Below are positions 491 to 49,560 of a stretch of DNA of 62,033 nt, piece by piece (position 1 is the stretch's first letter; every line of letters starts with the position of its first letter). The DNA is taken from positions 1 to 62,033 of the forward strand of contig JACQQF010000064.1 of NCBI GenBank assembly GCA_016207095.1, given 5' to 3'. The translations under genes and the position numbers were made by a program. Under the pieces are notes generated by a model. The model was not told the origin of the DNA and ran no database searches. It worked only from the letters and a program-made list of their open reading frames with translations. Source of the DNA: Candidatus Methylomirabilota bacterium. GTDB lineage: Bacteria > Methylomirabilota > Methylomirabilia > Methylomirabilales > Methylomirabilaceae.

Positions 491-568
491 AAATGCCGTC
501 AGGCGTTCAGCCGTCAGCCTTCAGCCAATAGCTGAGAGCTGATGGCTGAGAGCTGAAAGCTAATTACC
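491..568 (+). repeat. Heptad inverted-repeat array A (GCCGTCA/GCTGAGA type), rpsJ-rplC gap
   Basis: The gap reads almost entirely as 7-bp units: GCCGTCA, GCCGTCA, GCCTTCA in the left half, then GCTGAGA, GCTGATG, GCTGAGA, GCTGAAA in the right half. TCAGC/GCTGA blocks of the two halves are complementary, so the RNA could fold into an imperfect hairpin with arms of about 30 nt. It begins about 4 nt after the rpsJ stop and ends about 5 nt before the rplC GTG, which has no evident Shine-Dalgarno. It is one of seven arrays of the same architecture in the window. Confidence 0.85.
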
Positions 569-1201
569 GTGAGTATCGGACTGATCGGCAAGAAGGTCGG
601 GATGACGCAACTGTTTGACGAGAACGGCAAAGTCGTCCCTGTGACCGTCATAGAGGCCGGCCCATGTCCGGTGGTGCAGCGGAAGACCGCCGCCATTGAC
701 GGCTATGAGGCGATCCAGATCGGCTTTTGGCCACAGCTCAAGGCGAAGAGGGTCTCCAGGCCGATGAGGGGCCACTTTGAGAAGGTCAAGGTGGCTCCGC
801 AGAAACAGCTTCGAGAGTTCCGGCTCGAGTCGGCGGCGCCCCCCTCGTACACTGTCGGCCAGGTGTTGACCGTTGCGCTCTTCGGGGTGGGAGAGAAGGT
901 CCGGGTGATCGGGACCTCGAAGGGGAAGGGGTTTCAGGGCGGCGTCAAGCGGTGGGGCTACCGTGGCGGTCCGGAAACGCACGGCTCCATGTTCCACCGG
1001 GCCCCCGGTTCCATCGGCGCGTCGTCCTTTCCCTCGCGAGTCTTCAAAGGGCATCATATGCCGGGGCGAATGGGTGGGGCGCTGACGACCGTCAAGGCCC
1101 TGAAGGTAGTGAAGGTTATCCCCGAGCAGAACCTCCTGCTGGTGAGAGGTGCGGTTCCGGGACCTGCGGGCGGCCTGCTCACCATCCTGAAGCGAAGATA
1201 A
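569..1201 (+). CDS. rplC: 50S ribosomal protein L3
   Basis: A 210-residue L3 starting at GTG with the canonical [20 protein letters not shown]-terminus. The conserved basic loop that reaches toward the peptidyl transferase centre is present ([17 protein letters not shown], then a [16 protein letters not shown] block). The ending LLTILKRR is typical. L3 is an early assembly protein of the large subunit. The start is preceded by a heptad repeat rather than a recognisable ribosome-binding site. It lies 4 nt before rplD. Confidence 0.97.
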
Positions 1202-1205
1202 TCCG

Positions 1206-1844
1206 ATGGCCCAGAAGATCGCCCAGATTGTGGATATGAACAACGCGATGGCAGGGGAGGTTGCCCTCGACGAGGGGGTATTCGGCGCCGTCGTAAGACC
1301 GCACCTGGTTCACGATGTGGTCAGGATGCAACTTGCCAAGCGCCGACAGGGGACCGCCTCGACCCGCACGCGATCGGGCGTCCGAGGGGGCGGAAAGAAA
1401 CCTTGGAAACAGAAGGGAACAGGCCGGGCTCGGGCCGGGACGATCCGCTCGCCGTTGTGGCGGGGCGGGGGCACCGTTTTCGGGCCGACGCCCAGGAGCT
1501 ACGCCTACCTCGTCCCGAGGCGGGTCAGGGCTGCTGCGCTTTGCGCCGCACTCTCCTCGAAGGCTCAGGCGGGTCGCCTCATCATTCTGGAGAACCTCTC
1601 CCAGGAGCGCCCGAGCACCAAAGGGTTCAAGGCGTTGCTCCAAAGGTTGGGGGTCAAGGGGCGGGTCTTGATCGTGACGGATCGAGTGCAGGGAGACGAC
1701 GCGGCCACCAAGTCTTGCAGCAATCTTCGGGATGTCCTGCTGCTCCCCGTGCAAGGGCTCAATGTCTATGATCTCCTCAAGCACGAGACCCTGATCATCA
1801 CCCGGGCAGCGCTCAGCATGGTGGAGGAGGCGTGGAAGCCGTGA
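1206..1844 (+). CDS. rplD: 50S ribosomal protein L4
   Basis: A 212-residue L4 starting at ATG. The conserved exit-tunnel loop is visible as RRQGTASTRTRSGVRGGGKK followed by PWKQKGTGRARAG and SPLWRGGGTVFGPTPRSY. L4 lines the nascent peptide tunnel and in some bacteria represses its own S10 operon; I see no recognisable S10 leader here, so autoregulation cannot be claimed. It overlaps the start of rplW by 13 nt, suggesting translational coupling. Confidence 0.97.
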   Translation: MAQKIAQIVDMNNAMAGEVALDEGVFGAVVRPHLVHDVVRMQLAKRRQGTASTRTRSGVRGGGKKPWKQKGTGRARAGTIRSPLWRGGGTVFGPTPRSYAYLVPRRVRAAALCAALSSKAQAGRLIILENLSQERPSTKGFKALLQRLGVKGRVLIVTDRVQGDDAATKSCSNLRDVLLLPVQGLNVYDLLKHETLIITRAALSMVEEAWKP

Positions 1845-2131
1845 GGGAGCCTCATCAGATCATCCACCGCCCTGTCATCACCGAGAAGGGGACCGGGTTG
1901 AAGGATCAGGTCAACCAGTACCTCTTCGAGGTGGCCCGTGATGCAAACAAGATCGAGATCAAGCGTGCCGTTGAATCGCTCTTTCGCGTGAAAGTTCTCC
2001 AGGTCCGCACCCTCTCGATGAAGGGCAAGAAGAAAAGGGTGGGCCGCTCTGTCGGTCGGACCCCTGATTGGAAGAAAGCGGTGGCGACCCTGAAAGAGGG
2101 GGATAGCATCGAGTTTTTCGAGGGAGTCTAG
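1832..2131 (+). CDS. rplW: 50S ribosomal protein L23
   Basis: A 99-residue L23 starting at GTG within the end of rplD, after a GGAGGAGG sequence a few nt upstream. The IIHRPVITEKG motif near the N-terminus and the KVLQVRTLSMKGKKKRVGR block identify the family. L23 borders the peptide exit and is the docking site for trigger factor and signal recognition particle. It is followed by an unusually long 210-nt gap before rplB that holds a palindromic element. Confidence 0.97.
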   Translation: MEAVREPHQIIHRPVITEKGTGLKDQVNQYLFEVARDANKIEIKRAVESLFRVKVLQVRTLSMKGKKKRVGRSVGRTPDWKKAVATLKEGDSIEFFEGV

Positions 2132-2341
2132 TGCCGAGCCAATTGATGTCGCCTGGCGGCGTTGCGGCCTTCCGGGGCACTCCCTGCGACGTACCTAGAT
2201 TGTACGTCGGGTACCCGCACAGTGGGTGCGGCTCCGGACGCCGCGCCTGCACCCACCTTCGGTGGGTACCCGGCTCACCACTTGGCCCGGCATGGTTGTG
2301 GCCAACAACTAGAGTAAAGAATTTGTTGGGGGTCCACTAGA
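2132..2341. repeat. Palindrome-rich intergenic element between rplW and rplB
   Basis: This 210-nt gap holds nested palindromes. CGACGTAC and GTACGTCG flank a 7-nt loop at about 2189-2211. ACCCACC-TTC-GGTGGGT forms a tight hairpin at about 2250-2268. A GGGTACCC-(8 nt)-TGGGTGC block is mirrored downstream as GCACCCA-(9 nt)-GGGTACCC, giving a larger imperfect inverted repeat. The structure resembles a REP/MITE-like element, but only one copy is present here. It differs from the heptad arrays in having no 7-bp phase. The end carries the rplB leader with GGGGG before the GTG start. Confidence 0.6.
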
Positions 2342-3160
2342 GTGCCGATCCGAACCTACAAGCCGACATCGCCGGGCCGTCGCTTCCAGAGCGTTCTGGA
2401 CTCTTCCGATCTGAGCAGGACGAGACCGGAAAAGGGGTTGCTGCGTCCCCTCAGGAAGACCGGCGGGCGGAACGCGGCGGGGCGGCTGACGAGCCGTCAT
2501 CGTGGCGGCGGCCACAAACAAATGTATCGCCTCGTCGATTTCAGCCGGACCAAGACCGGGGTGCCGGCCAAGGTTGCGTCGATCGAGTACGATCCGAATC
2601 GCTCCGCAAGGATCGCTCTCCTTCATTATGCAGACGGCGAGAAACGGTACATTATTGCCCCTGCCGGCCTTCAGGTCGGGGAACAGCTCATGTCTGGTCC
2701 GGAGGCCGAGATCAAGGTGGGGAACGCTCTCCCACTGCGACATATTCCGGTCGGGATGACGCTCCATAATCTCGAGTTAAAGGTAGGCAAGGGAGCTCAA
2801 TTGGCAAGGAGTGCCGGTTCCGGGGCACAGTTTCTGGCCAAAGAAGGCGAGTACGGTTTGGTGAAGCTTCCCTCCGGGGAGGTGCGCCGGATCGCCCTTG
2901 ACTGTACGGCGGTCATCGGCCAAGTGGGAAACCCGGATCACGAGAATATCTCGTTGGGAAAGGCCGGTCGGTCCCGATGGCTTGGGATCAGGCCCTCAGT
3001 GAGGGGCGTGGCCATGAACCCCCATGATCACCCACTGGGAGGTGGCGAGGGAAAGACCTCCGGAGGCCGCCATCCCTGCAGCCCCTGGGGCAAGGTGGAG
3101 CGCAAAACCCGGAAGAAGGGGAAATCCTCCGATCGGTTTATTGTGAAGCGCAGAAAGTAA
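2342..3160 (+). CDS. rplB: 50S ribosomal protein L2
   Basis: A 272-residue L2 starting at GTG. It begins [15 protein letters not shown], carries the RNA-binding OB and SH3-like domains ([39 protein letters not shown]), and ends with the peptidyl-transferase-proximal [19 protein letters not shown] motif, including the conserved histidine of NPHDHP. L2 helps subunit association and catalysis. The next gene rpsS is separated by heptad array B. Confidence 0.97.
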
Positions 3161-3258
3161 GTGCGAGGTCCGAGGTCCGAAGTGCGAGGTGCGAAAAAGG
3201 CAGTGTGATGACTGAACTCTCGTGTTGCTTGACCAGAACCCCGCACCCCGCACCTTAC
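3161..3258 (+). repeat. Heptad inverted-repeat array B (GTGCGAG type), rplB-rpsS gap
   Basis: Immediately after the rplB stop five consecutive 7-mers run in phase at 3161-3195: GTGCGAG, GTCCGAG, GTCCGAA, GTGCGAG, GTGCGAA. A complementary right arm of CCCCGCA-type heptads lies at 3239-3258, directly before the AGGAGG of rpsS. The spacer of about 43 nt between the arms is not periodic. It is the same word family as arrays E and G elsewhere in the window. Confidence 0.85.
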
Positions 3259-3270
3259 CAGGAGGTCAGT

Positions 3271-3555
3271 GTGTCGCGATCATTGAAAAAGGGTCCGTAT
3301 GTGGACGCCAAGCTTCTGAAGAAGATCGAGACGATGAACGAGGCAAGGGACAAAAAGATCATCAAGACTTGGTCTCGGCGGTCGATCATTCTCCCTGAAT
3401 TCGTGGGGCACACGCTGGCGGTCCATAACGGAAAGAAATTCATCCCCATATACATTAGCGAGAATATGGTCGGGCATAAGCTGGGGGAGTTTTCCCCAAC
3501 AAGGACCTTTCGCGGGCATGGGGCACACACCGCGCGCGCCACGGCGCTGAAGTAA
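3271..3555 (+). CDS. rpsS: 30S ribosomal protein S19
   Basis: A 94-residue S19. The GTG at 3271 gives the standard [19 protein letters not shown] start and is preceded by AGGAGG; the reading frame stays open 66 nt further upstream, but that extension only translates the repeat array. Family motifs include [23 protein letters not shown] and [18 protein letters not shown]19 sits in the 30S head near the A-site finger. Confidence 0.97.
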
Positions 3556-3572
3556 CGGGGATCGAATCGATT

Positions 3573-3914
3573 ATGGAATGCCGTGCGGTTGGCCGGTTCA
3601 TACGAATTCCGCCCCGAAAGGCGAGGTTGGTCGTTGACCTGATTCGAGGTCATGACATCAACTGGGCGCTCAACACAGTGAAGTTTACGAAGAAGTATGC
3701 AGCCCGGGTGGTGGAGAAGATCCTCAAGTCGGCCCTGGCCAATGCGCAACACAACCACGGGGCCAAAGACGTTGACCGCCTCTTTGTCAAGGAGGCCTTC
3801 GTGGATCAAGGCCCGACCACGAAACGACTCCGGCCTCGTGCCATGGGACGGGCAACGCCGATCAAGAAGCGGAGCAGTCACATCACCATCGTCCTGAAAG
3901 AGAAAGAACTGTAA
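3573..3914 (+). CDS. rplV: 50S ribosomal protein L22
   Basis: A 113-residue L22, close to the family length. The N-terminus [21 protein letters not shown] and the C-terminal beta-hairpin sequence [20 protein letters not shown], which extends into the exit tunnel, are both present. L22 forms part of the tunnel constriction with L4. It is 17 nt from rpsS and about 75 nt from rpsC. Confidence 0.97.
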
Positions 3915-3989
3915 CCTGATTCTGTTTCTGCTGACCGCTGGGGCTTTCCTCCTCGGGGGACCTATGAGCCAGCGAGCCTTGGAGGTGTG

Positions 3990-4700
3990 ATGGGGCAGAA
4001 AGTCCACCCTGTAGGGTTCCGTCTCGGTATCATTAAGACGTGGAAGTCAAGGTGGTTCGCCACCAAAGGGTACGCGGACACCCTTCACGAAGATCTGAGG
4101 CTTCGCCGTTTCATCAAGGAGCGGGTCTATCACGCCGGGGTGTCCAGCATCGACATCGAGCGGAAGGCCGATCAGATACGCATTCTTATCCACACCGCCA
4201 GGCCCGGCATTATTATCGGGAAGAAAGGCTCGGAGGTGGAGAAACTGAAATCTGCACTCTCCAGCATGACCAGGAAGCAGGTTCAACTCGATATCTTGGA
4301 GGTTCGGAAGGCTGAACTGGACGCCCAGTTGATTGCCGAACAGGTCGCTTCTCAGCTCATGCGTCGGGTGGCCTTCAGGCGCGCCATGAAGAAAACCGTC
4401 CAGTCCACGATGCGGCTGGGGGCCCAAGGGGTTCAGATTGCGTGCGCCGGCCGTCTGGCCGGGGCGGAGATCGCCCGGAGAGAATGGTACCGCGAGGGGC
4501 GGATGCCCCTGAATACGCTGCGGGCCGATATCGACTACGGATTTACTCAGGCGAAGACCACCTATGGACTGATCGGGGTCAAGTGCTGGGTGTTCCAGGG
4601 TGAGGTGCTTCCCGAAATGCTGCTTGCCAAGCAGGAGCGGGAGGTCCCGCCGTTGGATCGACTCCGGCGGCCCAGGGGGCCTGCCCCGATCAAAGGCTGA
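3990..4700 (+). CDS. rpsC: 30S ribosomal protein S3
   Basis: A 236-residue S3 with [21 protein letters not shown] at its start, a KH domain ([20 protein letters not shown], around residues 75-95) and the C-terminal S3 domain ([16 protein letters not shown]-like block). S3 lines the mRNA entry channel and contributes to helicase activity. A GTG is one codon upstream, but GGAGG at 3981-3985 and the conserved MGQK start favour the ATG at 3990. Confidence 0.96.
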
Positions 4701-4705
4701 GCACG

Positions 4706-5125
4706 ATGCTGGCACCCAAGCGGGTCAAGTTCCGTAAACAACACCGGGGGCGCCGGACCGGAGTTGCCATCCGCGGCTCGACGTTGACGTTCGGAGAGTA
4801 CGGCCTGAAAGCCCTGGAGGCCGCCTGGATCACGAACCGGCAGATCGAAGCCGCACGGCGCGCCGTCACCCGCCATATCAAGAGGGGCGGCAAGGTGTGG
4901 ATACGAATCTTTCCGGATAAGCCGACGACGAAGAAACCGGCTGAGACACGGATGGGCAAGGGGAAGGGTGCCCCGGAGGGATGGGTGGCGGTGGTGAAGC
5001 CAGGCCGGGTCCTCTGCGAAATGGAAGGGGTAACTGAGGCAAATGCCCGGGAGGCGATGCGCCTTGCCGCCTATAAGCTTCCTATTGCCACCCGCTTTGT
5101 CTCTCGCAAAATGGCGGCGAACTAA
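4706..5125 (+). CDS. rplP: 50S ribosomal protein L16
   Basis: A 139-residue L16 beginning [19 protein letters not shown], with the conserved [21 protein letters not shown] helix and the [21 protein letters not shown] loop that contacts the A-site tRNA. The length matches the family. It follows rpsC by 5 nt and precedes rpmC by 8 nt, as in most bacteria. Confidence 0.97.
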
Positions 5126-5133
5126 GGGCGACG

Positions 5134-5355
5134 ATGGACGCCAAGGAGTTTCGGGAGCTGAGCACGGATGAGCTGGACCAGAAGCTTCGCGATCTCAGGG
5201 ATGACCTCTTCAAGCTGAAGCTCAGGGCATCGGTCACGCAGCTCGAGAACCCGTCGCGCATCCGACAACTCCGACGGGAGATCGCCCGCGGAATGACTGT
5301 GCTGCGGGAGTTGGCACGCAAGCAGGCTTCTCCAGCGACGGAGCAGGCACAATGA
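5134..5355 (+). CDS. rpmC: 50S ribosomal protein L29
   Basis: A 73-residue, mostly helical L29. The pattern [25 protein letters not shown] and the later [17 protein letters not shown] are the family hallmarks. L29 borders the exit tunnel next to L23. Its stop overlaps the start of rpsQ in an ATGA arrangement, indicating coupled translation. Confidence 0.96.
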
Positions 5356-5621
5356 CCGAGGAGAGACAACGAGGCCGCCGAAAAACTCTGGTGGGGGTCG
5401 TGGTCAGCGACAAGATGCACAAAACAGCCGTGGTTATGGTGGAGCGCCTCGTTCGTCATGAGATGTACGGCAAGATGATCCGGCGCAAGACAAAGTTCAA
5501 GGCCCACGACGAGGAGAATCGTTGCGGGATTGGTGACAAGGTTGTCATCGTGGAGACGCGGCCCCTCAGCAAGGAGAAACACTGGCGTGTAACGGAAGTG
5601 CTGGAGAAAGCAGCCGTCTGA
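5352..5621 (+). CDS. rpsQ: 30S ribosomal protein S17
   Basis: An 89-residue OB-fold S17 with the signature [21 protein letters not shown], then KYGK-like [19 protein letters not shown] and the [15 protein letters not shown] ending. It is a primary 16S-binding assembly protein. It is coupled to rpmC by a 4-nt overlap. The 135-nt gap to rplN shows nothing recognisable. Confidence 0.97.
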
Positions 5622-5756
5622 TCGGGTGGGCGCGCTGCAGGCAGGAGTGAAGGTTGGTTCGTTACAACCCGTCCTTTTCAACGGTTAACGGTACGCTGTA
5701 GGCCTTCGCTGCCAGGTCAAACGGCACCGGGATGGAGACAGGTAAGGTAGACAAAC

Positions 5757-6125
5757 GTGATCGGATTAAGGACCATCATGGAGGTGGCCGACAATTCCGG
5801 CGCCAAGCGGATCTCTCTGATCAAGGTGCTGGGGGGATCGGCGAAGAGGTACGCTCGCCTGGGCGACATCATCGTCGCGAACGTCAAGGAAGCGGTCCCG
5901 GAGGGCTCGGTGAAGAAAGGTGATGTGGTGAGGGCTGTGGTGGTCCGGACCTCAAAGGAACTTCGGCGCCCTGATGGATCCTACATCAAATTCGATCGAA
6001 ACGCCGCTGTGCTCCTGAACGAGCAGAATAACCCGGTTGGCACACGGATCTTTGGGCCGGTAGCGCGAGAGCTCCGTGACGCCCAGTTCATGAAGATTAT
6101 TTCCCTGGCGCCAGAGGTGGTCTAA
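5757..6125 (+). CDS. rplN: 50S ribosomal protein L14
   Basis: A 122-residue L14 that matches the universal family along its whole length: [19 protein letters not shown] near the start and [29 protein letters not shown] in the second half. The GTG at 5757 gives the expected [17 protein letters not shown]-terminus. L14 forms intersubunit bridges and binds the silencing factor RsfS. Confidence 0.96.
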
Positions 6126-6215
6126 CACGAGGAGAATCGGTCTGAGCTCCCAGATCGTGGATCGTAGTTCGGCTGCGTTCTCTCGCCTGGGATTGCCCAC
6201 TCTCTGAGGATAATT

Positions 6216-6545
6216 ATGGCGGTGGAATACGGGCGTGCGGTCAAGAAGAATGATCTGGTAATGGTGATCGCCGGGAAGGACAAGGGGAAGCGCGGTAAGG
6301 TTTTGAAGGTGATCCCCAAGATAGACCGAGCCCTGGTCGAAAAGCTCAACCTCATCAAGCGCCATACGAAGCCCGGGGCGGCCTCGAAACAGGGTGGCAT
6401 CCTCGAGCGTGAGAACCCGATTCACATCTCGAACCTTATGCTGGTGTGCAACAAGTGCGACCGCCCTGTCCGAGTCGGCACCAGCCACCTGAGTGATGGC
6501 AGGAAGGTACGAGTGTGTAGGAAGTGCGGCGAGGTGGTTGACTAG
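6216..6545 (+). CDS. rplX: 50S ribosomal protein L24
   Basis: A 109-residue L24 with the KOW motif ([23 protein letters not shown]) near the N-terminus. The C-terminal half keeps a four-cysteine CxxC...CxxC pattern (VCNKCDRP ... [10 protein letters not shown]), the zinc-ribbon-like form seen in many bacteria. L24 is an assembly initiator of the 50S subunit. It ends 9 nt before rplE. Confidence 0.97.
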
Positions 6546-6554
6546 GGGGGACGA

Positions 6555-7169
6555 ATGGCGGAACCGGTGAAACCAAAGAAGGGAGCAAAGAAAGCCGCCA
6601 AGGAGGTTGAGGCGCAGCCGCACGTTGTGCCCCGGCTCCGCGAGCGCTTTCGCCGGGAGATCACCCCTGCCCTGATGAAGCAGTTCGGGTATAAGAATGT
6701 TTGGCAGGTACCTCGCCCCCTGAAGGTGGTCATCAACATGGGGTTGGGAGAAGCTGTGGCGAACGTGAAGGTGATCGATGCGGCCGTAGAGGAGCTCTCG
6801 GCCGTGACGGGACAGCGGCCTGTTGTCACCCGCGCCAAGGGGTCTGAAGCGGGTTTCAAGCTGAGGACCGGGATGCCTATCGGCTGCAAGGTCACCATGC
6901 GGGGGGATCGGATGTACGAGTTCTTGGACCGGTTCCTCAATATGACGCTTCCCCGCATCAGGGATTTCAGAGGGGTTCCGGCCAAGTCCTTCGACGGCCG
7001 AGGCAACTATAATCTCGGCGTCAGGGAGCAGCTCATCTTCCCGGAGATCAAGTATGACAAGGTGGACGCGGTCCGAGGGATGGACATTGCCGTTGAGACC
7101 TCGGCCAGGACGGATGAGGAAGCCCGGGCGCTCTTAACCCATCTCGGATTTCCGTTCCAGAGGACCTAG
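6555..7169 (+). CDS. rplE: 50S ribosomal protein L5
   Basis: A 204-residue L5, about 25 residues longer than the usual 179 because of a Lys/Ala-rich N-terminal tail ([20 protein letters not shown]). The body is standard: [19 protein letters not shown], then [15 protein letters not shown] and [18 protein letters not shown]5 binds 5S rRNA and touches the P-site tRNA. The tail start is supported by GGGGGA just upstream. Confidence 0.96.
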
Positions 7170-7273
7170 CGCCATGATCCTAGAGTGTGAAAGCAGATGT
7201 CGTTCACCGCGAGCATCTCGAAAAGTGAGCATTCCCGATGGAGGGAGAGGGAAGGGCCGCCTTCTCAGCAGCC

Positions 7274-7459: not shown

Positions 7460-7547
7460 GAGCGCCGCGCGTTCGGGGGTCGACGTCCCGAACGTCCTCG
7501 AGCCTCGAGTCCCGAACACGAACCGTAGAGCATGGAGCCACCCAGCC

Positions 7548-8562: not shown

Positions 8563-8589
8563 GCCGCATCGCGCCTCGGAGGTTTTGGG

Positions 8590-13353: not shown

Positions 13354-13443
13354 GGTTCACTGTTCACGGTTCACGGTTAACAAGAGCAGTGACGAGGATG
13401 ATTTGGTCTGTCAACCGTGAACTGTCAACCGTAAACTGCTGAC
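13354..13443 (+). repeat. Heptad inverted-repeat array C (GGTTCAC type), rpmJ-rpsM gap
   Basis: The left arm at 13354-13381 reads GGTTCAC, TGTTCAC, GGTTCAC, GGTTAAC in perfect 7-nt phase. The right arm at 13410-13437 reads GTCAACC, GTGAACT, GTCAACC, GTAAACT. The reverse complement of the right arm matches the left arm at 22 of 28 positions by hand alignment. The loop is about 28 nt. The array begins 5 nt after the rpmJ stop and ends just before the GAGG and ATG of rpsM. Confidence 0.88.
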
Positions 13444-19486: not shown

Positions 19487-19583
19487 GGCGTGGGGTAAAG
19501 GGTTTAAGGTAAAGGGTGGAGACTTGGCGGACGAGGGCTGCTGATCTTTTACGCTAACCCCTATACCCCATACCCCAGACCCC
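19487..19583 (+). repeat. Heptad inverted-repeat array D (GGGTAAA/CCATACC type), rimP-nusA gap
   Basis: The left arm at 19493-19520 reads GGGTAAA, GGGTTTA, AGGTAAA, GGGTGGA. The right arm at 19547-19581 reads TTTTACG, CTAACCC, CTATACC, CCATACC, CCAGACC, all in 7-nt phase. The arms are complementary in pattern (GGGTA/TACCC), with a roughly 26-nt non-periodic loop. The array spans the gap from the rimP stop to the GAGG of nusA. Confidence 0.86.
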
Positions 19584-19595
19584 GGTGTGAGGACG

Positions 19596-23970: not shown

Positions 23971-24054
23971 GTGCGAGGTGCGAGGTGCGAGAAGAGACGT
24001 GCGAGGTGCGACGTGCACGGTACCTCGGACTTCGCACCCCGGACTCCGCACCGT
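23971..24054 (+). repeat. Heptad inverted-repeat array E (GTGCGAG type), infB-ylxP gap
   Basis: The clearest array: twelve consecutive 7-mers with no break in phase. The first seven are GTGCGAG (three times), AAGAGAC, GTGCGAG, GTGCGAC, GTGCACG; the last five are GTACCTC, GGACTTC, GCACCCC, GGACTCC, GCACCGT, which are complementary in pattern to the first. It begins 4 nt after the infB stop and ends 8 nt before the ylxP ATG, which has no Shine-Dalgarno. Confidence 0.9.
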
Positions 24055-32653: not shown

Positions 32654-32663
32654 CAATGAGAAT

Positions 32664-32765
32664 GTTCCAAGTTCGTGGTGCCAGGTTCCATGTTAGAAGG
32701 ACCTAACAACTTGGAACGCAGAACGTGGAACCTGGAACTGCGAAGCTGAACCTGGAACTCGGAAC
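32664..32765 (+). repeat. Heptad inverted-repeat array F (GTTCCAG type), purB-purS gap
   Basis: Left half: GTTCCAA, GTTCGTG, GTGCCAG, GTTCCAT, GTTAGAA. Right half: ACAACTT, GGAACGC, AGAACGT, GGAACCT, GGAACTG and, after a single 1-nt slip, TGAACCT, GGAACTC, GGAAC. About fourteen units stay in phase. The arms are complementary (GTTCC/GGAAC). The array begins 10 nt after the purB stop and runs straight into the purS ATG, with no Shine-Dalgarno in between. Confidence 0.88.
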
Positions 32766-33083
32766 ATGGTGATAGCCAAGATCTACGTGACCTTGAAGCC
32801 GGGGGTCCTCGACGCACAGGGCGATACAGTGAAGTCTGCGCTTGAGACCCTGGGATTCACGGGCGTGGAAGACGTGCGAATCGGGAAGTTCATGGTGGTC
32901 ACTCTGAACAGCGCGACGGTCGAAGAAGCCAAGACACAGGTCGAGGAGATGTGCCGGCGGCTCCTCGCGAATCCGGTCATAGAGGACTACACCTTCGAAA
33001 TGGGGGCCCCCGATCTCGCGCCGCCTGGCAAGCCTGTCGGGAGACGACTCACAGGCCCTATTCGGGAGGGGCGCGAGCGATGA
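32766..33083 (+). CDS. purS: Phosphoribosylformylglycinamidine synthase subunit PurS
   Basis: A 105-residue PurS with IAKIYVTLKPGVLDAQGDTV and the ALETLGFTGVEDVRIGKFM core, ending in CRRLLANPVIEDYTFE plus a basic tail of about 25 residues that is longer than usual. PurS bridges PurL and PurQ in the three-part FGAM synthase. Its ATG directly abuts heptad array F with no ribosome-binding site. It overlaps purQ by 4 nt. Confidence 0.94.
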   Translation: MVIAKIYVTLKPGVLDAQGDTVKSALETLGFTGVEDVRIGKFMVVTLNSATVEEAKTQVEEMCRRLLANPVIEDYTFEMGAPDLAPPGKPVGRRLTGPIREGRER

Positions 33084-42377: not shown

Positions 42378-42390
42378 ACAAGGAGGGACT

Positions 42391-42588: not shown

Positions 42589-42639
42589 TGGTGAACTGAC
42601 CAAGACTTAAAGGCTACGTGAGAAGGCGGGGAGAACAGC

Positions 42640-42999: not shown

Positions 43000-43024
43000 T
43001 CACTGAGCGATCCCTATGATATCC

Positions 43025-43051
43025 GCCCCGACCCTGTCGGGGCTTCTTGTT
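43025..43051 (+). terminator. Terminator or attenuator hairpin between rplT and pheS
   Basis: GCCCCGAC and GTCGGGGC form a perfect 8-bp stem with a 3-nt CCT loop, followed by TTCTTGTT. Its right edge is directly before the GGAGG of pheS. It could end the infC operon or attenuate pheST; I see no Phe-rich leader peptide in the 63-nt gap, so classical Phe attenuation is not supported. Confidence 0.75.
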
Positions 43052-43062
43052 GTGGAGGTCGG

Positions 43063-44115
43063 GTGAACGAGCTGCGAAAGGAACTTGAGAATCTTCTGGC
43101 GGAGGCCATCGCCCAGATTCAGAACAGCGCGGACGCGACTCAGCTCGAGCAGACCCGCGTCCACTTTCTCGGTCGCAGGGGGCGAGTTACCACTATTCTT
43201 CGCCAGTTGGCAACGTTGGCCCCCGAGGACCGTCCCACGGTCGGCGCACTTGCCAACCAGGTCAAGGAGACGATCGAAGAGAGGGTTGTCGCCCGTCGAG
43301 CCGCCTTCGAAACGATTCCGAGTGATGAAATCCTGGCCGAAGACCTGATCGACGTTACCCTGCCGGGGCGCCGCCCAGGCCTGGGTCGCCTGCACCCCAT
43401 TACACAGATCATCCGACGGATCTGTGGGGTCTTCGTGGAAATGGGCTTTGCCGTCATGGAAGGGCCTGAGGTTGAGTGGGATTACTACAACTTCGAAGCC
43501 CTGAACATCCCCGAGGATCATCCCGCCCGGGATATGTGGGACACCTTCTGGATCGATCCGGGGATCTCAGACGTCGCCAAGCCGATGCTGCTAAGAACGC
43601 ATACCTCTCCGATGCAGATTCGCATCATGGAGCAGACCCGGCCGCCGATCCGCGTCATCGTCCCGGGGAAGTGTTATCGCTACGAAGCAGTGGACGCCAG
43701 CCACGAGAGTCAGTTTGACCAGATCGAAGGGCTGGCCGTGGACGAGCAGATTACCTTTGCCGACCTAAAGGGGACGCTGCATACCTTCGCCCGCCACCTC
43801 TTCGGCAAGGACCGAAAGGTCCGCTTTCGGTGCGATTATTTCCCTTTTGTCGAGCCGGGAGTAGATATGTCAATTGATTGCTTTCTCTGCAGGGGCGGCG
43901 GGTGCCGGCTGTGCAAGGAGAGCGGGTGGCTGGAGATTCTTGGGGCCGGGATGGTCCACCCGGGCGTTCTCGCCCGCGTCGGCTACGACCCGGCGCGATA
44001 CAGCGGCTTCGCCTTTGGACTTGGGCCGGCACGGGTCGCCATGCTGAAGTATGGCATCGAAGATATCCGCTTCTTCCACGGTAACGACCTCCGCTTCCTC
44101 CGCCAGTTCCCCTGA
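43063..44115 (+). CDS. pheS: Phenylalanyl-tRNA synthetase alpha subunit
   Basis: A 350-residue catalytic subunit. An N-terminal coiled coil (residues ~1-85) is followed by the class II core: GRLHPITQIIRRICGVFVEM, LLRTHTSPMQIRIME and FDQIEGLAVDE, with motif 3 in GFAFGLGPARVAMLKYGIED. GTG start, with GGAGG at 43054-43058. A CLCRGGGCRLC segment in the late part holds three to four cysteines, found in many PheS proteins. The 172-nt gap to pheT shows nothing I recognise. Confidence 0.97.
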   Translation: MNELRKELENLLAEAIAQIQNSADATQLEQTRVHFLGRRGRVTTILRQLATLAPEDRPTVGALANQVKETIEERVVARRAAFETIPSDEILAEDLIDVTLPGRRPGLGRLHPITQIIRRICGVFVEMGFAVMEGPEVEWDYYNFEALNIPEDHPARDMWDTFWIDPGISDVAKPMLLRTHTSPMQIRIMEQTRPPIRVIVPGKCYRYEAVDASHESQFDQIEGLAVDEQITFADLKGTLHTFARHLFGKDRKVRFRCDYFPFVEPGVDMSIDCFLCRGGGCRLCKESGWLEILGAGMVHPGVLARVGYDPARYSGFAFGLGPARVAMLKYGIEDIRFFHGNDLRFLRQFP

Positions 44116-44287
44116 GGACCGGCGTTTGCGCGATCATCCCGGACTCCGTCTTTCGCACATGGTGAGAGTCAATGAATCTAGTGGGTCCCGGGTCGTTTCT
44201 CCGGCTACCGACCGGTGTATGACGGCGCTGCGAGTCCCCGCCCCGCCGTTGTGTCGATACCCCTGAGCATCCTTCTGTGGAGAAGAC

Positions 44288-46702
44288 GTGAAGGTCTCGA
44301 TCAAGTGGCTGGCTGAGTATGTTGACATTGCGGTGCCCGCAAAGGAGCTGGCCCACCTGTTGACCATGTCGGGAACCGAGGTGGCCGGCATCACACAACG
44401 TGGAGAGGGGTGGGCCGGGATCGTCGTTGGTCGCGTCGCCTCCCTTCGCCCTCACCCGACGGCTGACTCCTTGACGCTCGCGACCATCGAGGTCCGTGAG
44501 GATCCCGTGACTGTCGTGACCGGTGCCACGAACCTGAAGGTGGGAGATAAGGTTCCCTATGCGCCGGTTGGCGCCCGCCTCCTGGATGTCCACACGGGCC
44601 GGCGAGCGGCCGTGGGGGGGGTCAGGATTCGGGGGGTGGAGTCGTGGGGAGTCGTCTGCTCCGAAAAAGAGCTGGGTCTCTCGGATGCCCACGAGGGAAT
44701 CTTGATCCTCTCGCCCGAGGCCGAGATCGGCCAACCGCTGGCGGATGTGCTGGGTGACACCATTCTCGACCTCGAGATCACACCGAATCGGCCCGACTGC
44801 CTGGGGGTGTTAGGGCTCGCCCGCGAGGTGGCTGCCCTCACTGAAGAGTCGCTCCATCTCCCCGACCTGACCTATCTCGAACAGGGTCCTGATGTGAGGG
44901 AGGCAGCGCAAGTTGAGATCCTGGCGCCGGACCTTTGCCTTCGATACGGCGCGTCCGTGATCTACGATGTCACGGTTGGCCCATCGCCCTTCTGGCTTCG
45001 GGACCGCCTTCTCACCGCTGGAGTGCGGCCGATCAACAGTGTCGTTGATATCACAAACTATGTCATGCTCGAGTACGGGCAGCCGTTGCATGCCTTCGAT
45101 TACGAGACGCTGCTGGGCCGGCGAATCGTGGTCCGGCGCCCCCGACCCGGGGAATCGATTCGCACGCTGGACGGCGTCGTGCGTCAGCTCACCACCGAGA
45201 TGCTGGTGATCGCGGATGCGGAGCGCCCCGTGGCCTTGGCGGGAATCATGGGCGGGGCGGAGACGGAGGTGACTGAGCGGACGAGAGTGGTGCTCCTCGA
45301 ATCGGCCAATTTCTCTCCTACGTCGATCCGTCGGGGTTCTCGTACCTTGAGACTCAAGACCGAGGCGTCTGTCCGCTTCGACAAGGGTCTGCCGCCGTCC
45401 CTCGCCATGTTGGCGCTGAGACGCGCCACCAAGATGTTGGTGGAGCTGTGTGGGGGCCATGCCTCGCGTGGGGTCCTGGATGCCTATCCGGGTCGGCGAG
45501 AATCGATCACCATCAGGCTGACGCCTGGGGAGCTCCGGCGGATCTTGGGCATCGAGCTGACGCTGGCCCAGATGAGCCGTGCGCTGGGGCGGCTTGGGTT
45601 CGAATGCCGAGAAGAGGGACAGGCCCTTCTTGTCAGATCGCCGGAGCACAGGAGTGATATCCAGATCCCCGCCGATCTTGTGGAGGAGGTGGCACGCCTC
45701 ATCGGATATGATCGGATCCCGACGACGACGTTGGCCGGCCCCCTCCCGGATCATCCCCCTCAGCCGAGGCGTTCCCTCACGGAGCGGGTGAGAGACCTGC
45801 TGGTCGGCTGCGGCCTACAGGAAGTGATCAGCTACTCATTGGTCGGCCACCGGCTCCTGAGCAAGATCGCCCCGGGGGCGCAGGATGGGGCGCCGGATCC
45901 CCTCCGCTTGGCGAACCCGATGACGCCCGACCACGAGATGCTGCGGACGTCGCTGCTACCCAGCCTCTTGGAGTGTGTCGTCGGTAATCTTTGTCTGGAC
46001 GAGCCGGGTCCCCGGCTGTTCGAGATCGGGCGAGTCTATCTCCCGCGCAAAGGGGATCTGCCCAGGGAACGAGAGATGCTTGTGATTGCCATGGCCGGCC
46101 CGGGATGCCAAAGGGGATGGAGCGAAAGGACGGTGGAGCTGGATTTCTACGACTTGAAAGGGGTCGTGGAGGAACTCCTGGTTCGGCTGAATCTGGAAGA
46201 GCCGCGTTTTTGTCGGACCGCCAGCCAGGACGTCCTTCATCCCGGTCGAGCGTTGGCCATCGAGTGGAAAGGCCTGCGGCTCGGGGTGATGGGAGAGCTT
46301 CACCCTAAGGTCGCCCGTAACTTCGAGTTCCGGGTTCCGGTGTTTCTGGCCGAGTTCGACCTGGAACTGCTCCTTGAGGCGTGTCAGGGTGATTCCCTGC
46401 GGATCGCGCCCCCACCACGCTTTCCGGCCGTGCGAAGGGACCTTGCGCTTGTGGTGGAGGAGCGAGTCGCTGTGTCGGAGTTGTTCGACCTGATCCGGCA
46501 AGCCGGTGGACCACTCCTTGCTGCGGTTGAGCTCTTCGACCTGTACCATGGCCAGGGGCTGCCGCCTGGGACCAAATCGTGCGGGGTTACGGTAACCTTC
46601 CGGTCCCCGGAGCGGACCTTAATCGATGCCGAGGTGGCCGAGATCGAGGCCCGCATAACTGATCTGCTTCAGAAGAGGACTGGGGCACGCTTGCGAGGAT
46701 AG
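44288..46702 (+). CDS. pheT: Phenylalanyl-tRNA synthetase beta subunit
   Basis: An 804-residue PheT. The N-terminal EMAP-like tRNA-binding domain (IVVGRVASLRPHPTADSLTL), the B3/B4 editing region (GVRPINSVVDITNYVMLEYG; QPLHAFDYE), the B5 domains and a C-terminal anticodon-binding domain (RFPAVRRDLALVVEERVAV) are in order. It joins PheS as a heterotetramer. GTG start. The IMGGAETEVTERT motif is intact. Confidence 0.97.
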   Translation: MKVSIKWLAEYVDIAVPAKELAHLLTMSGTEVAGITQRGEGWAGIVVGRVASLRPHPTADSLTLATIEVREDPVTVVTGATNLKVGDKVPYAPVGARLLDVHTGRRAAVGGVRIRGVESWGVVCSEKELGLSDAHEGILILSPEAEIGQPLADVLGDTILDLEITPNRPDCLGVLGLAREVAALTEESLHLPDLTYLEQGPDVREAAQVEILAPDLCLRYGASVIYDVTVGPSPFWLRDRLLTAGVRPINSVVDITNYVMLEYGQPLHAFDYETLLGRRIVVRRPRPGESIRTLDGVVRQLTTEMLVIADAERPVALAGIMGGAETEVTERTRVVLLESANFSPTSIRRGSRTLRLKTEASVRFDKGLPPSLAMLALRRATKMLVELCGGHASRGVLDAYPGRRESITIRLTPGELRRILGIELTLAQMSRALGRLGFECREEGQALLVRSPEHRSDIQIPADLVEEVARLIGYDRIPTTTLAGPLPDHPPQPRRSLTERVRDLLVGCGLQEVISYSLVGHRLLSKIAPGAQDGAPDPLRLANPMTPDHEMLRTSLLPSLLECVVGNLCLDEPGPRLFEIGRVYLPRKGDLPREREMLVIAMAGPGCQRGWSERTVELDFYDLKGVVEELLVRLNLEEPRFCRTASQDVLHPGRALAIEWKGLRLGVMGELHPKVARNFEFRVPVFLAEFDLELLLEACQGDSLRIAPPPRFPAVRRDLALVVEERVAVSELFDLIRQAGGPLLAAVELFDLYHGQGLPPGTKSCGVTVTFRSPERTLIDAEVAEIEARITDLLQKRTGARLRG

Positions 46703-46756
46703 TTTTCACTTTACAAGGCTGATGTGCTTTGATAGGCTTTCGCGTGAGCAACGTCG

Positions 46757-47092
46757 ATGAGCCAGGCGAAGCGAATCCCAGGGGGGCCATCACAGCAAGG
46801 CCTGGAAATGATTGGGGAAAAGCTCAAGGAACTGGAGGGTCGAGTAAAAGCGGCTGTTGCTCGTATCGTGAAGGTTAAGGGAGAGAAGTCGTTATTGGAG
46901 CGGAGGGTGGAGGAGCTGAAAGCCACCATCAGCGGCCGATCGGAGCAGATGAAGACCCTTGAGGCCGGACGAAAGAAGGATCAGGAGCAGCTCAGTCGCC
47001 TGCAGCGAGAACGCGACGCCGTTCGGCTCAAGATAGATCGCGTGCTGGAGGAGATTGCGAAGATCGAAGCCTCCGTCGAGCCGGAACCCTGA
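46757..47092 (+). CDS. ZapB-like coiled-coil protein upstream of zapA
   Basis: A 111-residue protein dominated by a predicted coiled coil from about residue 18 to 105 (for example EKLKELEGRVKAAVARIVKV and LERRVEELKATISGRSEQMK). I do not recognise it by sequence, but a short coiled coil directly before zapA recalls ZapB, the partner that links ZapA/FtsZ in cell division. It ends 6 nt before zapA, so the two are cotranscribed. The function is inferred from shape and neighbourhood only. Confidence 0.75.
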   Translation: MSQAKRIPGGPSQQGLEMIGEKLKELEGRVKAAVARIVKVKGEKSLLERRVEELKATISGRSEQMKTLEAGRKKDQEQLSRLQRERDAVRLKIDRVLEEIAKIEASVEPEP

Positions 47093-47098
47093 CGCAGC

Positions 47099-47383
47099 AT
47101 GGAACACCTGATTACTGTGATGATCCTAGGAGAGCAGTACACGATCCGGGCGACGGACGACCCCGCATACGTCCGAAAGGTGGCGCGGTATGTTGAGGAG
47201 AAGTTGGAGGCGGTGGTGACGGGTTCTCCATCTCTTCCCTCTAACAAAGCCATCGTCTTGGCCTCATTGAATATTGCAGACGAGCTCTTTAAACGTGAAA
47301 CAGAGAGGGAACGGTCCGAGGCGTCGGTAGCGGCCAGGCTTGGTGAGCTATCAGATCTGTTGGGGGCCGAACTCACATCATGA
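47099..47383 (+). CDS. zapA: Cell division protein ZapA
   Basis: A 94-residue ZapA: ITVMILGEQYTIRATDDPAY with the VRKVARYVEEKLEAV helix, then KAIVLASLNIADELFKRETE leading into the C-terminal coiled coil. ZapA crosslinks FtsZ filaments. A 466-nt gap follows in which a 6S RNA gene is expected and probably present. Confidence 0.93.
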   Translation: MEHLITVMILGEQYTIRATDDPAYVRKVARYVEEKLEAVVTGSPSLPSNKAIVLASLNIADELFKRETERERSEASVAARLGELSDLLGAELTS

Positions 47384-47489
47384 ACAGACGGTCCCCGTGG
47401 AGCGGCGGTTGTGATCCTCATGTCAGGGGGACGTACGTGGAGAAAGAGGGCAGTGCTCTAGGCTGCATGGGTCCTCACGGTTTTCGTGA

Positions 47490-47672
47490 AGCCACCTGCA
47501 GTGTTCGTGATGAGGGCGCGTGCTTCACCTCAACGGCGGAAGAAAGGGAGCCATCATCACTGCGTGGCGCGCGCGGCCCTGACTTTTCCCGGGAGAGTGT
47601 GAATTGCTGCCTGGACGGCCGCCTGGTTGACCAGGTTGACACATCACCTCTCGCACGCCAGACCGGTGGAGG
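47490..47672 (+). ncRNA. ssrS: Probable 6S RNA
   Basis: In many bacteria 6S RNA lies just downstream of zapA, here in a 466-nt gap before rny. The segment CCTGCAGTGTTCGTGATGAG aligns with the E. coli 5' region CUCUGAGAUGUUCGCAAG, followed by GGGC as in GCGGGC. The ends can close with CCACC/GGTGG (47492, 47665), GTGATG can pair with CATCAC, and a CCTGGT-TG-ACCAGG hairpin sits where E. coli has its 3' hairpin. The length of about 180 nt fits. The limits are estimates; a covariance search would settle it. Confidence 0.6.
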
Positions 47673-47849
47673 GTCGTCCCCTTTCTCGTCCTTCTTCGCC
47701 GCTCATTGTCGGAGCTGATCACCTTCTCGATCTTTTCCCGCCCCGGCCTAAAGACCTTCTCGCTATTCCCTTCTCAGTGAGCCTGTTGTATCGTCGGCCG
47801 TTGCGTAAGCAGCGGTGGCGCACATAACTCGGAAGGAGGTGTACGTCCG
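47673..47849 (+). other. Leader region of rny
   Basis: After the probable 6S RNA, the DNA is C/T-rich (CCCCTTTCTCGTCCTTCTTC and CTTCTCGATCTTTTCCC), then leads to the strong AAGGAGGTG of rny at about 47833. I see no gene, repeat or clear promoter in it. Confidence 0.5.
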
Positions 47850-49415
47850 TTGATAATCGGGCTGGCCGAGCTGGCGATCGTCCTGATCGTGGCGGTCGTC
47901 GGAGTGGTCGTCGGGTACCTACTGAGAAAGCGGATCGTCGAAAGCAGGGTGGCCGAGGCGGAGACCTTATCCAAACGGATCCTGCGCGAGGCCGAGAAGG
48001 AAGCAGAAACGAAACGCAAGGAGGCCGAACTTGAGGCCAAGGAATTCGCCTTCCAGGCGAAGGCCGATCTAGAACGGGAGAGCAAGGGTCGTCGGCAGGA
48101 GCTCCAGAATCTCGAACGTCGCTTGGCCCAGAGGGAAGAGGCGGTGGGTCGGAAGCATGAGCAAGTGGAGCGGCGCGACCGCGATCTTGGTTCACGGGAA
48201 CGGGACATCGCCAACAAGGAACGGGCTACCGTTGAGAAGGAGAACCGGGGAACCCAATTGATGGAGGAGGCACAGCGGCAACTGGAGCGGATCTCCGGCC
48301 TTACAGCCGAGGAGGCCAAACGGATCTTGCTCCAGAACCTGGAGAATGAGGCCAAGCTTGAGGCGATCGCCTTATTCAAGCAGCTGGAGGACGAGACAAG
48401 GGAAGGGGCCGACCGGAAGGCCAAAGAGATACTCGCCGTCGCCATTGATCGATGTGCCACAGAGTTCGTCATGGAATCAACGGTCTCCGTGGTCGACTTA
48501 CCGAACGAAGACATGAAGGGGCGGATCATCGGCCGGGAGGGAAGAAACATCCGGGCTTTCGAGCGCGCGACGGGGATCGATGTGATCGTGGATGATACCC
48601 CCGAGGCGGTGATCCTGTCCGGCTTTGATTCGATCAGGCGGGCCATCGCGAAAGAGGCGCTCCAACGACTCATCACCGACGGTCGGATCCATCCCACTCG
48701 AATTGAGGAAATGGTGGAGAAGGTCAAGGGCGAGATAGAGGATGACATCAAGAAGGCTGGAGAACAGGCAGCCTTCGAGCTGGGCATCACCGATTTGCAT
48801 CCTGAGCTGGTCCGCTTGGTTGGGCGTCTCAAGTACCGAACCAGCTATTCACAGAATCAGCTCCAACACACTTCTGAAGTGGCGCAGATGGCCGCCACCA
48901 TCGCGTCTGAGTTGGGGCTCGATGCCAAGGTGGCAAGGCGGGCGGGCTTGCTTCATGACATCGGAAAGTCAGCCGATGTCAACATCGAAGGAACCCATGT
49001 CACCATTTCGGCTGAACTGGCCAAGAAATACGGTGAGGACCCCAAGGTGGTGAATGCCATCGCCGCCCACCATGAAGATGTGGAGATCACCTGTCTCGAA
49101 GCTGTGGTGCTCCAAACCGCTGACACGATCTCGGCGGCCAGGCCGGGGGCGAGACGCGAACTGCTGGAAAGCTACGTGAAGCGGCTGGAAGGGTTGGAGA
49201 AAATCGCCAACTCCTTCCCCGGAGTCAGCAAGACCTACGCTATCCAGGCAGGTCGAGAGGTACGCATCATCGTGGAAAGCTCCGAGGTCTCGGACATGCA
49301 GGCGTACCAACTTTCGCGGGACATCGCAAAACGGATCGAAAAAGAGCTGCAGTACCCGGGCCATATCAAGGTCACAGTGATCCGCGAGACGCGTGCAGTC
49401 GAGTACGCCAAATAG
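47850..49415 (+). CDS. rny: Ribonuclease Y
   Basis: A 521-residue membrane-anchored endoribonuclease. An N-terminal helix ([20 protein letters not shown]), a coiled coil of about 150 residues, a KH domain ([20 protein letters not shown]) and an HD domain ([15 protein letters not shown]) are in the family order. It starts mRNA decay in bacteria without a dominant RNase E. TTG start, decided by AAGGAGGTG 8 nt upstream. Its last codons are partly duplicated inside array G. Confidence 0.97.
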
Positions 49416-49560
49416 AACAGTGCGATGTGCGGGGTCCGAAGTGCGAAGTTCGAAATCCAATACGCGAAGTAGAACGGTGCGAAGTGCGGAGTGCGATGTG
49501 CGAGGCGCGACACTAAGCCGGGTTCTGAGCGGACCTCGCACCTCGGACCTCGTACCGTAA
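49416..49560 (+). repeat. Heptad inverted-repeat array G (GTGCGAG type), rny-ymdB gap
   Basis: From 49420 the 7-mers GTGCGAT, GTGCGGG, GTCCGAA, GTGCGAA, GTTCGAA run in phase, then after a 1-nt slip GTGCGAA, GTGCGGA, GTGCGAT, GTGCGAG, GCGCGAC. The right end carries ACCTCGC, ACCTCGG, ACCTCGT, complementary in pattern. In the middle (49461-49489) lies a 29-nt copy, 25 of 29 identical by eye, of 49404-49432, which includes the last rny codons and stop. The array ends 8 nt before ymdB, which has no Shine-Dalgarno. Confidence 0.88.

What the first reader, a model, noticed from the sequence alone, without database searches (positions are those of the whole stretch)
491..49560. Seven stop-to-start heptad inverted-repeat arrays inside housekeeping operons
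Seven intergenic gaps (491-568, 3161-3258, 13354-13443, 19487-19583, 23971-24054, 32664-32765, 49416-49560) are built from degenerate 7-bp units in nearly unbroken phase, with the 3' half complementary in pattern to the 5' half. Each starts 0-10 nt after a stop and ends 0-13 nt before the next start. The word differs by locus (GCCGTCA, GTGCGAG, GGTTCAC, GGGTAAA, GTTCCAG types) but unit length and architecture do not. Four of the downstream genes (rplC, ylxP, purS, ymdB) have no visible Shine-Dalgarno. Short tandem heptamers (STRRs) are known from cyanobacteria, but a hairpin form with locus-specific words that exactly fills operon gaps suggests an active process generating or maintaining them, and possible roles in mRNA processing, differential stability or translation start.
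Basis: partly seen in the sequence, partly recalled or inferred. Interest (0 to 1): 0.8.

Follow-up and report, generated by a model that had tools for sequence, protein, structure and literature searches.

The report
Seven-base hairpin repeats between operon genes
In bacteria related to the methane oxidiser Methylomirabilis, many short gaps between neighbouring genes are filled by seven-letter DNA words repeated forwards and then in reverse complement; many of these gaps stay the same between species while the favoured word changes, which points to an unexplained process that rewrites them.

Summary
All seven gaps carry a period-7 signal that 0 of 200 shuffles reach; six of seven fold better than shuffles (z -2.4 to -7.0), 3161-3258 does not (-1.1). 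The arrays are genome-wide: 102 lag-7 segments in 738 kb against 0-5 at each of ten control lags; also in a single-contig relative and in other Methylomirabilota, with no excess over lag 8 in 66 loci of other phyla.

'Locus-specific words' is not right. A few word families recur across loci, with one polarity (62 of 62 two-armed arrays). Species often keep the gap but not the word, and several genomes favour their own (GTGCGAR here, GTTCCRN in G011, GTTCAAN in G013/G007/G014/G003, GTTTCGN in G009/G002).

Closest known: inverted GGGAATC heptamers of Xanthomonas (PMC4692102), also between aligned genes, function unknown. The kind is known; species dialects and word switching at conserved gaps were not in what I read. 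Best explanation: local heptad duplication plus genome-wide word homogenisation, tolerated between stop and start. Function untested.

The parts
491..568 (.). Heptad hairpin, word family B (5' arm TCAGCNN / CAGCNNT, 3' arm GCTGANN), fills the rpsJ-rplC gap
   Evidence: of 12 genomes read at this gap 7 reach lag-7 score 10, four are weak (5-8) and G011 has none
3161..3258 (.). Heptad array, word family A (GTGCGAR/GTCCGAR; 5' arm 3159-3194, 3' arm 3233-3254), rplB-rpsS gap
   Evidence: MFE z only -1.1; GTTCCAG in sister species G011
13354..13443 (.). Heptad hairpin, word family C (GGTTCAY; arms 13355-13381 and 13408-13438), rpmJ-rpsM gap
19487..19583 (.). Heptad hairpin, word family D (AGGGTNN type; 3' arm 19552-19585), rimP-nusA gap
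   Evidence: D word at score 11-18 in the seven genomes read at this gap, two of them nearly identical
23971..24054 (.). Heptad hairpin, word family A (GTGCGAG), infB-DUF503 (ylxP) gap
   Evidence: arrays of E, C, F or G words in relatives, 14 of 15 genomes at score 10 or more
32664..32765 (.). Heptad hairpin, word family E (GTTCCRR; arms 32662-32694 and 32708-32744), purB-purS gap, ends 0 nt before ATG
   Evidence: gap is 1 nt in 7 of 14 genomes read
49416..49560 (.). Long heptad hairpin, word family A (5' arm in two blocks 49420-49462 and 49477-49510, 3' arm 49530-49556), rny-ymdB gap
   Evidence: E, F or C words in relatives
6139..6171 (.).
   Evidence: score 9.6
7496..7515 (.). Weak lag-7 segment upstream of rpsH, near the control level; several relatives hold family B units in this gap
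   Evidence: score 9.4; gap 14

Best explanation
These gaps hold members of one dispersed superfamily of degenerate 7-bp tandem repeats, typically built as (W)n - loop - (reverse complement of W)n with one polarity, in the stop-to-start gaps of co-directional genes of Methylomirabilota. Shown: period 7, location, polarity of two-armed arrays, recurring word families, genome-specific dominant words, different words at orthologous gaps, decline of unit similarity with distance. Inferred: arrays grow and shrink by local duplication of heptads (slippage or unequal exchange), and are overwritten by words from other arrays of the same genome at the scale of one or a few units (ectopic conversion or reseeding followed by amplification), so that one word comes to dominate a genome. 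Inferred: they survive between stop and start because nothing is disrupted there and because two complementary arms let the insert fold away in the mRNA, keeping neighbouring cistrons close. No specific regulatory role is needed or shown.
For: Period 7 in excess, 102 against 0-5. Arrays in 57 of 284 co-directional gaps of 50-200 bp against 2 of 35 convergent or divergent ones (p 0.038). Unit similarity falls with distance. Polarity 62 of 62. Dialects by genome. Of eight gaps with GTTCCRN arrays in G011 that could be placed in G000, six have GTGCGAR arrays, one has family B, one was not resolved by the script and lies beside an E array. Arrays mixing A and E units are rare: 1 of 71 in G000, 1 of 43 in G011. 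Longest exact matches between arrays of one genome are little above unit-shuffled arrays (mean 18.5 against 16.2-17.1 bp; 30 bp or more in 4 arrays against 0-2), so whole arrays are mostly not recent copies. No Y1 transposase and no reverse transcriptase match in G000.
Against: Weak sharing between arrays is also what one expects if nothing is exchanged between loci. Polarity would need descent from very few founding hairpins, or recognition. Families B and D keep their word at some gaps across the genus, so homogenisation is not general. 64 of 126 classified arrays had only one arm by the criterion. The near-identical pair G014/G007 shows 3 substitutions in 498 array sites and no length change, too few to show fast turnover. 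Some arrays of G011 and G006 have none at the matching place in G000.
Confidence: 0.5

Rival explanations
1. A trans-acting, word-reading factor (an RNA- or DNA-binding protein, or a guide RNA) uses the arrays; its specificity drifts, and arrays all over the genome follow, giving species dialects as for DNA uptake sequences.
For: Genome-specific dominant words, one polarity, a shared degenerate heptad among nine genus words beyond permuted or strand-flipped words (4.73 against means of 3.43 and 3.46, 0 of 200 each, words picked by hand), few mixed arrays.
Against: Several different words coexist in one genome; arrays lie beside genes of many kinds; the heptad pattern is not significant for seven more distant words taken alone (12 and 50 of 200); no candidate factor was identified.
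Confidence: 0.25
2. Purely neutral heptamer slippage at each locus on its own, 7 nt being favoured by the polymerase, with no exchange between loci.
For: Heptamers are reported as the most abundant intergenic tandem repeats in a wide range of prokaryotes (PMC6344855, passages); the polymerase-slippage idea is recounted in PMC4679880 and PMC4692102; unit similarity falls with distance.
Against: Does not give genome-specific dominant words at orthologous gaps, palindromic arms in 60 of 83 arrays of 50 bp or more or one polarity.
Confidence: 0.1
3. The arrays are regulatory RNA hairpins under selection for structure: intercistronic processing, stability or translational coupling elements.
For: Folding beyond shuffles in six of seven window gaps, bias to co-directional gaps, fewer Shine-Dalgarno-like motifs behind arrays, 15 of 60 palindromic arrays pair better than unit-shuffled ones at p<=0.05 (about 3 expected).
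Against: 45 of 60 palindromic arrays do not; purB-purS does without any insert in 7 of 14 genomes; 64 of 126 classified arrays are one-armed.
Confidence: 0.1
4. REP-like or other mobile palindromes spread by a transposase (RAYT, Y1) or a reverse transcriptase.
For: Intergenic, palindromic, one polarity, filled and empty purB-purS sites interleaved on the tree. Other array-rich genomes of the genus (G013, G007, G009) do have both Y1 and reverse transcriptase matches.
Against: No Y1_Tnp and no RVT_1 match in G000, G011 or G002, three array-rich but incomplete genomes; no long stretch shared between arrays of one genome.
Confidence: 0.05

Closest known systems
GGGAATC heptamer repeats of Xanthomonas (Rehm et al. 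2015, PMC4692102; sections 10, 14, 16 and passages read)
   [quoted passage not shown] 70 and 75 convergent inverted pairs able to form stem-loops; [quoted passage not shown] mostly transcribed; function unknown
   Different: One G-rich word tied to G-quadruplexes; here several word families, most without tracts of three G, species dialects, and different words at the same gap
TAACTGA heptamer repeats of marine Beggiatoaceae, cyanobacteria and Bacteroidetes (MacGregor 2015, PMC4679880; abstract, sections 3 and 16 and passages read)
   Same: Intergenic heptamers close to start codons, also inside ribosomal-protein operons and upstream of the L3 gene; few Shine-Dalgarno motifs
Tandem heptanucleotide elements of Geobacter metallireducens (PMC2700814; passages only)
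   Same: Multicopy tandem heptanucleotides; one class (MTYCTGA) is laid out in its legend as switching strands round a loop
   Different: Presented as predicted global regulator binding sites or regulatory RNA; the alignments were not seen here
DNA uptake sequence dialects of Neisseriaceae (PMC3630211; search listing only)
   Same: A short word repeated genome-wide that differs by species (partly recalled)
   Different: Not tandem heptads; tied to transformation; analogy only

Membership tests
Intergenic heptameric simple sequence repeats | Tandem units of 7 bp in excess over other periods | tested here: met
   102 at lag 7 against 0-5 at ten control lags in 738 kb
Intergenic heptameric simple sequence repeats | Mainly outside coding sequence | tested here: met
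   81 intergenic (one a run of N), 2 mixed and 20 in called genes, of 103 segments; intergenic fraction of bases 0.148
Xanthomonas-type inverted heptamer pairs | Two convergent heptamer sites on opposite strands, close together | tested here: met
   60 of 83 arrays of 50 bp or more palindromic (Z>4); 62 of 126 classified arrays two-armed, all with one polarity
Xanthomonas-type inverted heptamer pairs | Preference for gaps between aligned ORFs | tested here: met
   57 of 284 against 2 of 35 gaps of 50-200 bp, p 0.038
Xanthomonas-type inverted heptamer pairs | G-rich word GGGANTN able to form G-quadruplexes | tested here: not met
   Only family D has tracts of three G every 7 nt; families A, B, C, E, F mostly do not (by reading)
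REP elements with RAYT transposase | Y1 transposase in the genome | tested here: not met
   0 matches to PF01797 in G000; assembly 94.88% complete; 10 of 15 genus genomes do have matches
REP or MITE | Conserved core or ends shared between copies | tested here: not met
   Longest exact match between 71 arrays 18.5 bp mean against 16.2-17.1 for unit-shuffled arrays
Intrinsic terminators | Hairpin followed by a T run | tested here: not met
   No T run after any of the seven arrays (by reading; no terminator scan was run)
Known structured RNA families | Match to an Rfam model | tested here: not met
   At the gathering threshold the window matches only 16S rRNA and four tRNAs
DNA uptake sequences | Word required for natural transformation | not testable with these tools
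   No experiment possible

The most novel reading that the evidence does not exclude
A trans-acting, word-reading or word-templating system writes or maintains heptad arrays in operon gaps of Methylomirabilota: the specificity of one component defines a species dialect, and when it changes, arrays at conserved sites across the genome are rewritten to the new word in both arms with the same polarity.
Probability: 0.22. Interest if true: 0.88.

Novelty: new variant of a known kind. Interest (0 to 1): 0.62.

Why it matters
[quoted passage not shown] This genus offers closely related genomes in which sites stay put and the word changes. That separates the period and the hairpin from the word: G-quadruplex formation cannot account for most of these words, and the open question becomes testable by asking what, in each species, prefers its own word.

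Tried and rejected
Stop codons in all frames as the reason for period 7: rejected by reading, the GTGCGAG word has no stop in any frame of either strand. Reverse transcriptase or RAYT machinery: no match in G000, G011, G002, although other array-rich genomes have both. Whole-array copying between loci: little above unit-shuffled arrays. Strict RNA structure: unit order matters in 15 of 60. Fast point turnover between G014 and G007: 3 of 498 array sites against 54 of 29,680 other sites, too few. A heptad pattern shared with distant words: not significant for those seven alone; the set of all 16 words gives 1 and 2 of 200. Literature: no held paper has both terms, none has three of the four terms, and the 15 papers listed of 4,465 do not contain Methylomirabilis; the library holds open-licence papers only. 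A search for cyanobacterial STRR words, recalled from memory, found no paper naming them.

Weak points of my counts. The gene caller is my own and simple; small genes such as rpmJ are missed, and 20 of 103 lag-7 segments in called genes were not resolved. include one fetched stretch that reads entirely as N, which adds one segment at each lag; it was left out from then on. Eleven of the 20 G011 stretches were chosen because they hold GTTCCRN hits, so the family tallies for G011 are biased; the genome-wide counts are not. Several order-level stretches lie on contigs that had a pattern hit. The reversed-pattern control itself matches the other arm of the GTTCAAG word and is high (33-63) in genomes rich in that word. 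Family labels were taken from observed 5' arms, so the first array of each family is no independent test of polarity. Species share ancestry, so the 62 and 87 arrays are not independent.
Full report
What was checked. The seven gaps were read directly. Each is built of 7-bp units, with the second half the reverse complement of the first by word. Best lag-7 scores (13.6 to 30.3) were never reached by 200 dinucleotide shuffles of the same gap; MFE z-scores range from -7.0 to -1.1, and 3161-3258 is the one that does not fold better than its shuffles.

Where it comes from. The best named relatives of the window's L3 protein are Candidatus Methylomirabilota (NC10) records. Fourteen congeners are held; one, G006, is a single contig of 2,752,854 bases, the size that I recall for Candidatus Methylomirabilis oxyfera. 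Arrays in that genome argue against an assembly artefact.

Genome-wide signal. In 738,217 bases of this genome (window plus 39 fetched stretches) there are 102 lag-7 segments above threshold against 0-5 at lags 4, 5, 8, 10, 11, 13, 16, 17, 19 and 20; lag 14 gives 65. In 400 kb of G006 the numbers are 33 against 0-3; in 184 kb from eleven congeners 50 against 0-2; in 14 named Methylomirabilota loci 32 against 0-2. Four of those 14 loci (L031, L032, L033, L035) match genus genomes G001 and G012 in contig length and hold 3 of the 32. Nine loci from six other genomes of the order gave 17 at lag 7 but also 9 at lag 8, so the signal is less clean there. In 66 loci of other phyla lag 7 (11) does not exceed lag 8 (13). 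With my gene of 103 lag-7 segments are intergenic although 15% of bases are; 20 fall in called genes and were not resolved (one of the 81 is a run of N).

Position. Arrays sit in 42 of 462 co-directional gaps and 4 of 70 others in G000, and in 24 of 249 and 0 of 39 in G006. For gaps of 50-200 bp in both genomes the split is 57 of 284 against 2 of 35 (p 0.038). A quarter of co-directional gaps of 80-120 bp (25 of 99) hold one. Median distance is 5 nt from the stop and 15 nt to the start over 66 gaps. Of 58 such gaps up to 200 bp, 43 arrays begin within 15 nt of the stop, 41 end within 25 nt of the start and 27 do both, so exact filling is common, not universal.

Words. Listing the arrays shows families that recur: A GTGCGAR, B CAGCNNT, C GGTTCAY and GTTCAAN, D AGGGTNN, E GTTCCRR, F GTTTCGR, and rarer G GTGTTSA and H GTTTTYA. 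Of 138 arrays, 126 were classified; 62 have both arms and all 62 run word then reverse complement; 64 have one arm only by that criterion. In G000 alone it is 31 of 31. A word-agnostic pairing of arms gave 87 two-armed arrays that share a degenerate heptad, roughly RRNGTTC in the 5' arm, scoring 2.76 against 1.82-2.03 in eight random strand flips and 1.44-1.61 in eight column permutations. With one word per family, nine genus words score 4.73 against 3.43 for permuted words (0 of 200); all 16 words score 3.26 against 2.61 (1 of 200); the seven more distant words alone do not stand out. The arrays share ancestry and the 16 words were picked by hand, so this is suggestive only.

Same gap, different word. 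At rny-ymdB the gap holds GTGCGAR in G000, GTTCCAG in its sister G011, GTTTCGA types in G002, G009, G005 and G001, and GTTCAAG types in G013, G014, G007, G012 and G003; G004 and G010 hold unrelated sequence, G006 an array broken by another insert, and G008 only two heptads. At infB-ylxP 14 of 15 genomes reach score 10, with A, E, F, C or G words by species. At rplB-rpsS only 4 of 12 genomes do, with A in G000, G002 and G005 and E in G011. By contrast rpsJ-rplC shows B, and rimP-nusA shows D, wherever an array is clear. G006 and G010, a short distance apart on the tree, have F and C at infB-ylxP.

Dialects. Whole-genome counts, both strands: A-type (one mismatch allowed) 179 in G000, 29 in G011, 20 in G002 and 1-11 in the rest; E-type 165 in G011, 48 in G002, 43 in G000 and at most 15 elsewhere; GTTCAAN 187 in G013, 138 in G007, 127 in G014, 109 in G003, 71 in G009, at most 19 elsewhere, 1 in G000 and 1 in G002; GTTTCGN 97 in G009, 82 in G002, 51 in G013, at most 13 elsewhere, 11 in G000 and 3 in G011. 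Some genomes, such as G006, G008, G005 and G012, have low counts for all four. Both flanks of 14 of 40 G011 segments could be placed in the sampled part of G000. E arrays among them cover eight gaps: six have A in G000, one has B, one was not resolved by the script but lies beside an E array. Of the other five segments one C and one F kept their word and three (B, C, D) have no clear array in G000. Of 28 G006 segments 9 were placed: four face arrays (B-B, D-D, F-A, G-E), the rest face none or were unresolved. Arrays with at least two A and two E units are rare, 1 of 71 in G000 and 1 of 43 in G011. So words are replaced wholesale and in parallel at several loci. That is the most surprising result here.

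Gain and loss. purB and purS are one nucleotide apart in seven of fourteen genomes read. The other seven hold inserts of 55-219 nt, five of them clear arrays of E or of G/H words; in G000 the array ends directly at the ATG. Filled and empty genomes are interleaved on the tree (empty G003 beside filled G006 and G010, empty G012 beside filled G013), so several independent gains, or several exact losses, are needed. Losses also occur: G010 has a D array upstream of rplN where G006 keeps only its last bases.

Dynamics within arrays. At variable unit positions, identity falls from 0.47 between neighbours to 0.25 four units apart, as expected from local tandem duplication. Of 83 arrays of at least 50 bp, 60 are palindromic (Z>4), but shuffling the order of units inside each arm lowers pairing at p<=0.05 in only 15 of 60. 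Arms therefore match by word, mostly not unit by unit. Longest exact matches between arrays of G000 barely exceed those of unit-shuffled arrays, so recent copying of whole arrays is not seen.

Machinery. G000, G011 and G002 have no match to Y1 transposase (PF01797) or to reverse transcriptase (PF00078); other genomes, including array-rich G013, G007 and G009, have both. Such enzymes are thus not required, with the caveat that the three assemblies are incomplete. No Rfam family covers the arrays.

Mechanism. I put 0.5 on local heptad duplication plus exchange of units among arrays of one genome, with survival of arrays limited to stop-start gaps and helped by folding. Duplication is supported; exchange is inferred from the dialects; the folding advantage is inferred from the arms and the co-directional bias. 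The main rival is a trans-acting factor that reads the word (0.25). Present data do not separate these two.

What is known. [quoted passage not shown] Xanthomonas GGGAATC repeats share most of the layout: degenerate heptads, convergent inverted pairs, gaps between aligned genes, conserved context, unknown function (PMC4692102, sections 10, 14, 16). Beggiatoaceae TAACTGA repeats also occur in ribosomal operons, even before the L3 gene (PMC4679880, section 16). Geobacter metallireducens has multicopy tandem heptanucleotides (PMC2700814, passages). The arrays are thus a new and extensive variant of a known but unexplained kind. What these papers, as far as read, do not describe is several word families in one genome, species dialects, and word switching at conserved sites.

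Noticed in passing
L214 (G006 rny-ymdB gap), L230 and L231 (G008, G013 purB-purS gaps): A second, conventional-looking palindromic element with variants of GTCATTCC...GGAATCCAG sits in the same gaps, in G006 between the two arms of a heptad array.
   Followed up: no
L134 14410-17454 (G000:C8): Five heptad arrays of the GTGCGAR type and one of the GTTTCG type within about 3 kb, two of them inside my called genes.
   Followed up: no
L037 4068-4098 and L036 4252-4276: Distant Methylomirabilota loci carry tandem TTGGTCA / ATTGGTC heptads; I recall TTGGTCA as a cyanobacterial STRR word but could not confirm it in the library.
   Followed up: partly
L220 (G008 rny-ymdB gap): Only two GTGCGAG heptads are present and run in phase into a GTG start codon of ymdB (GTGCGAGGTGCGAGGTGCGC), as if the array had been cut back into the gene start.
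   Followed up: no
L112 (G011 rpsJ-rplC gap): The closest relative has no family B array here and holds an unrelated 184-nt sequence.
   Followed up: no
L203 and other-phyla loci L045-L110: Lag-8 repeats equal or exceed lag-7 repeats (6 against 3 in L203; 13 against 11 in 66 other-phyla loci).
   Followed up: no
61446-62033: The window ends inside a 16S rRNA gene, cut at the contig end.
   Followed up: no
32766-33083: The purS reading frame is 105 aa, but only its first 79-80 residues match relatives and the NCBIfam model.
   Followed up: no
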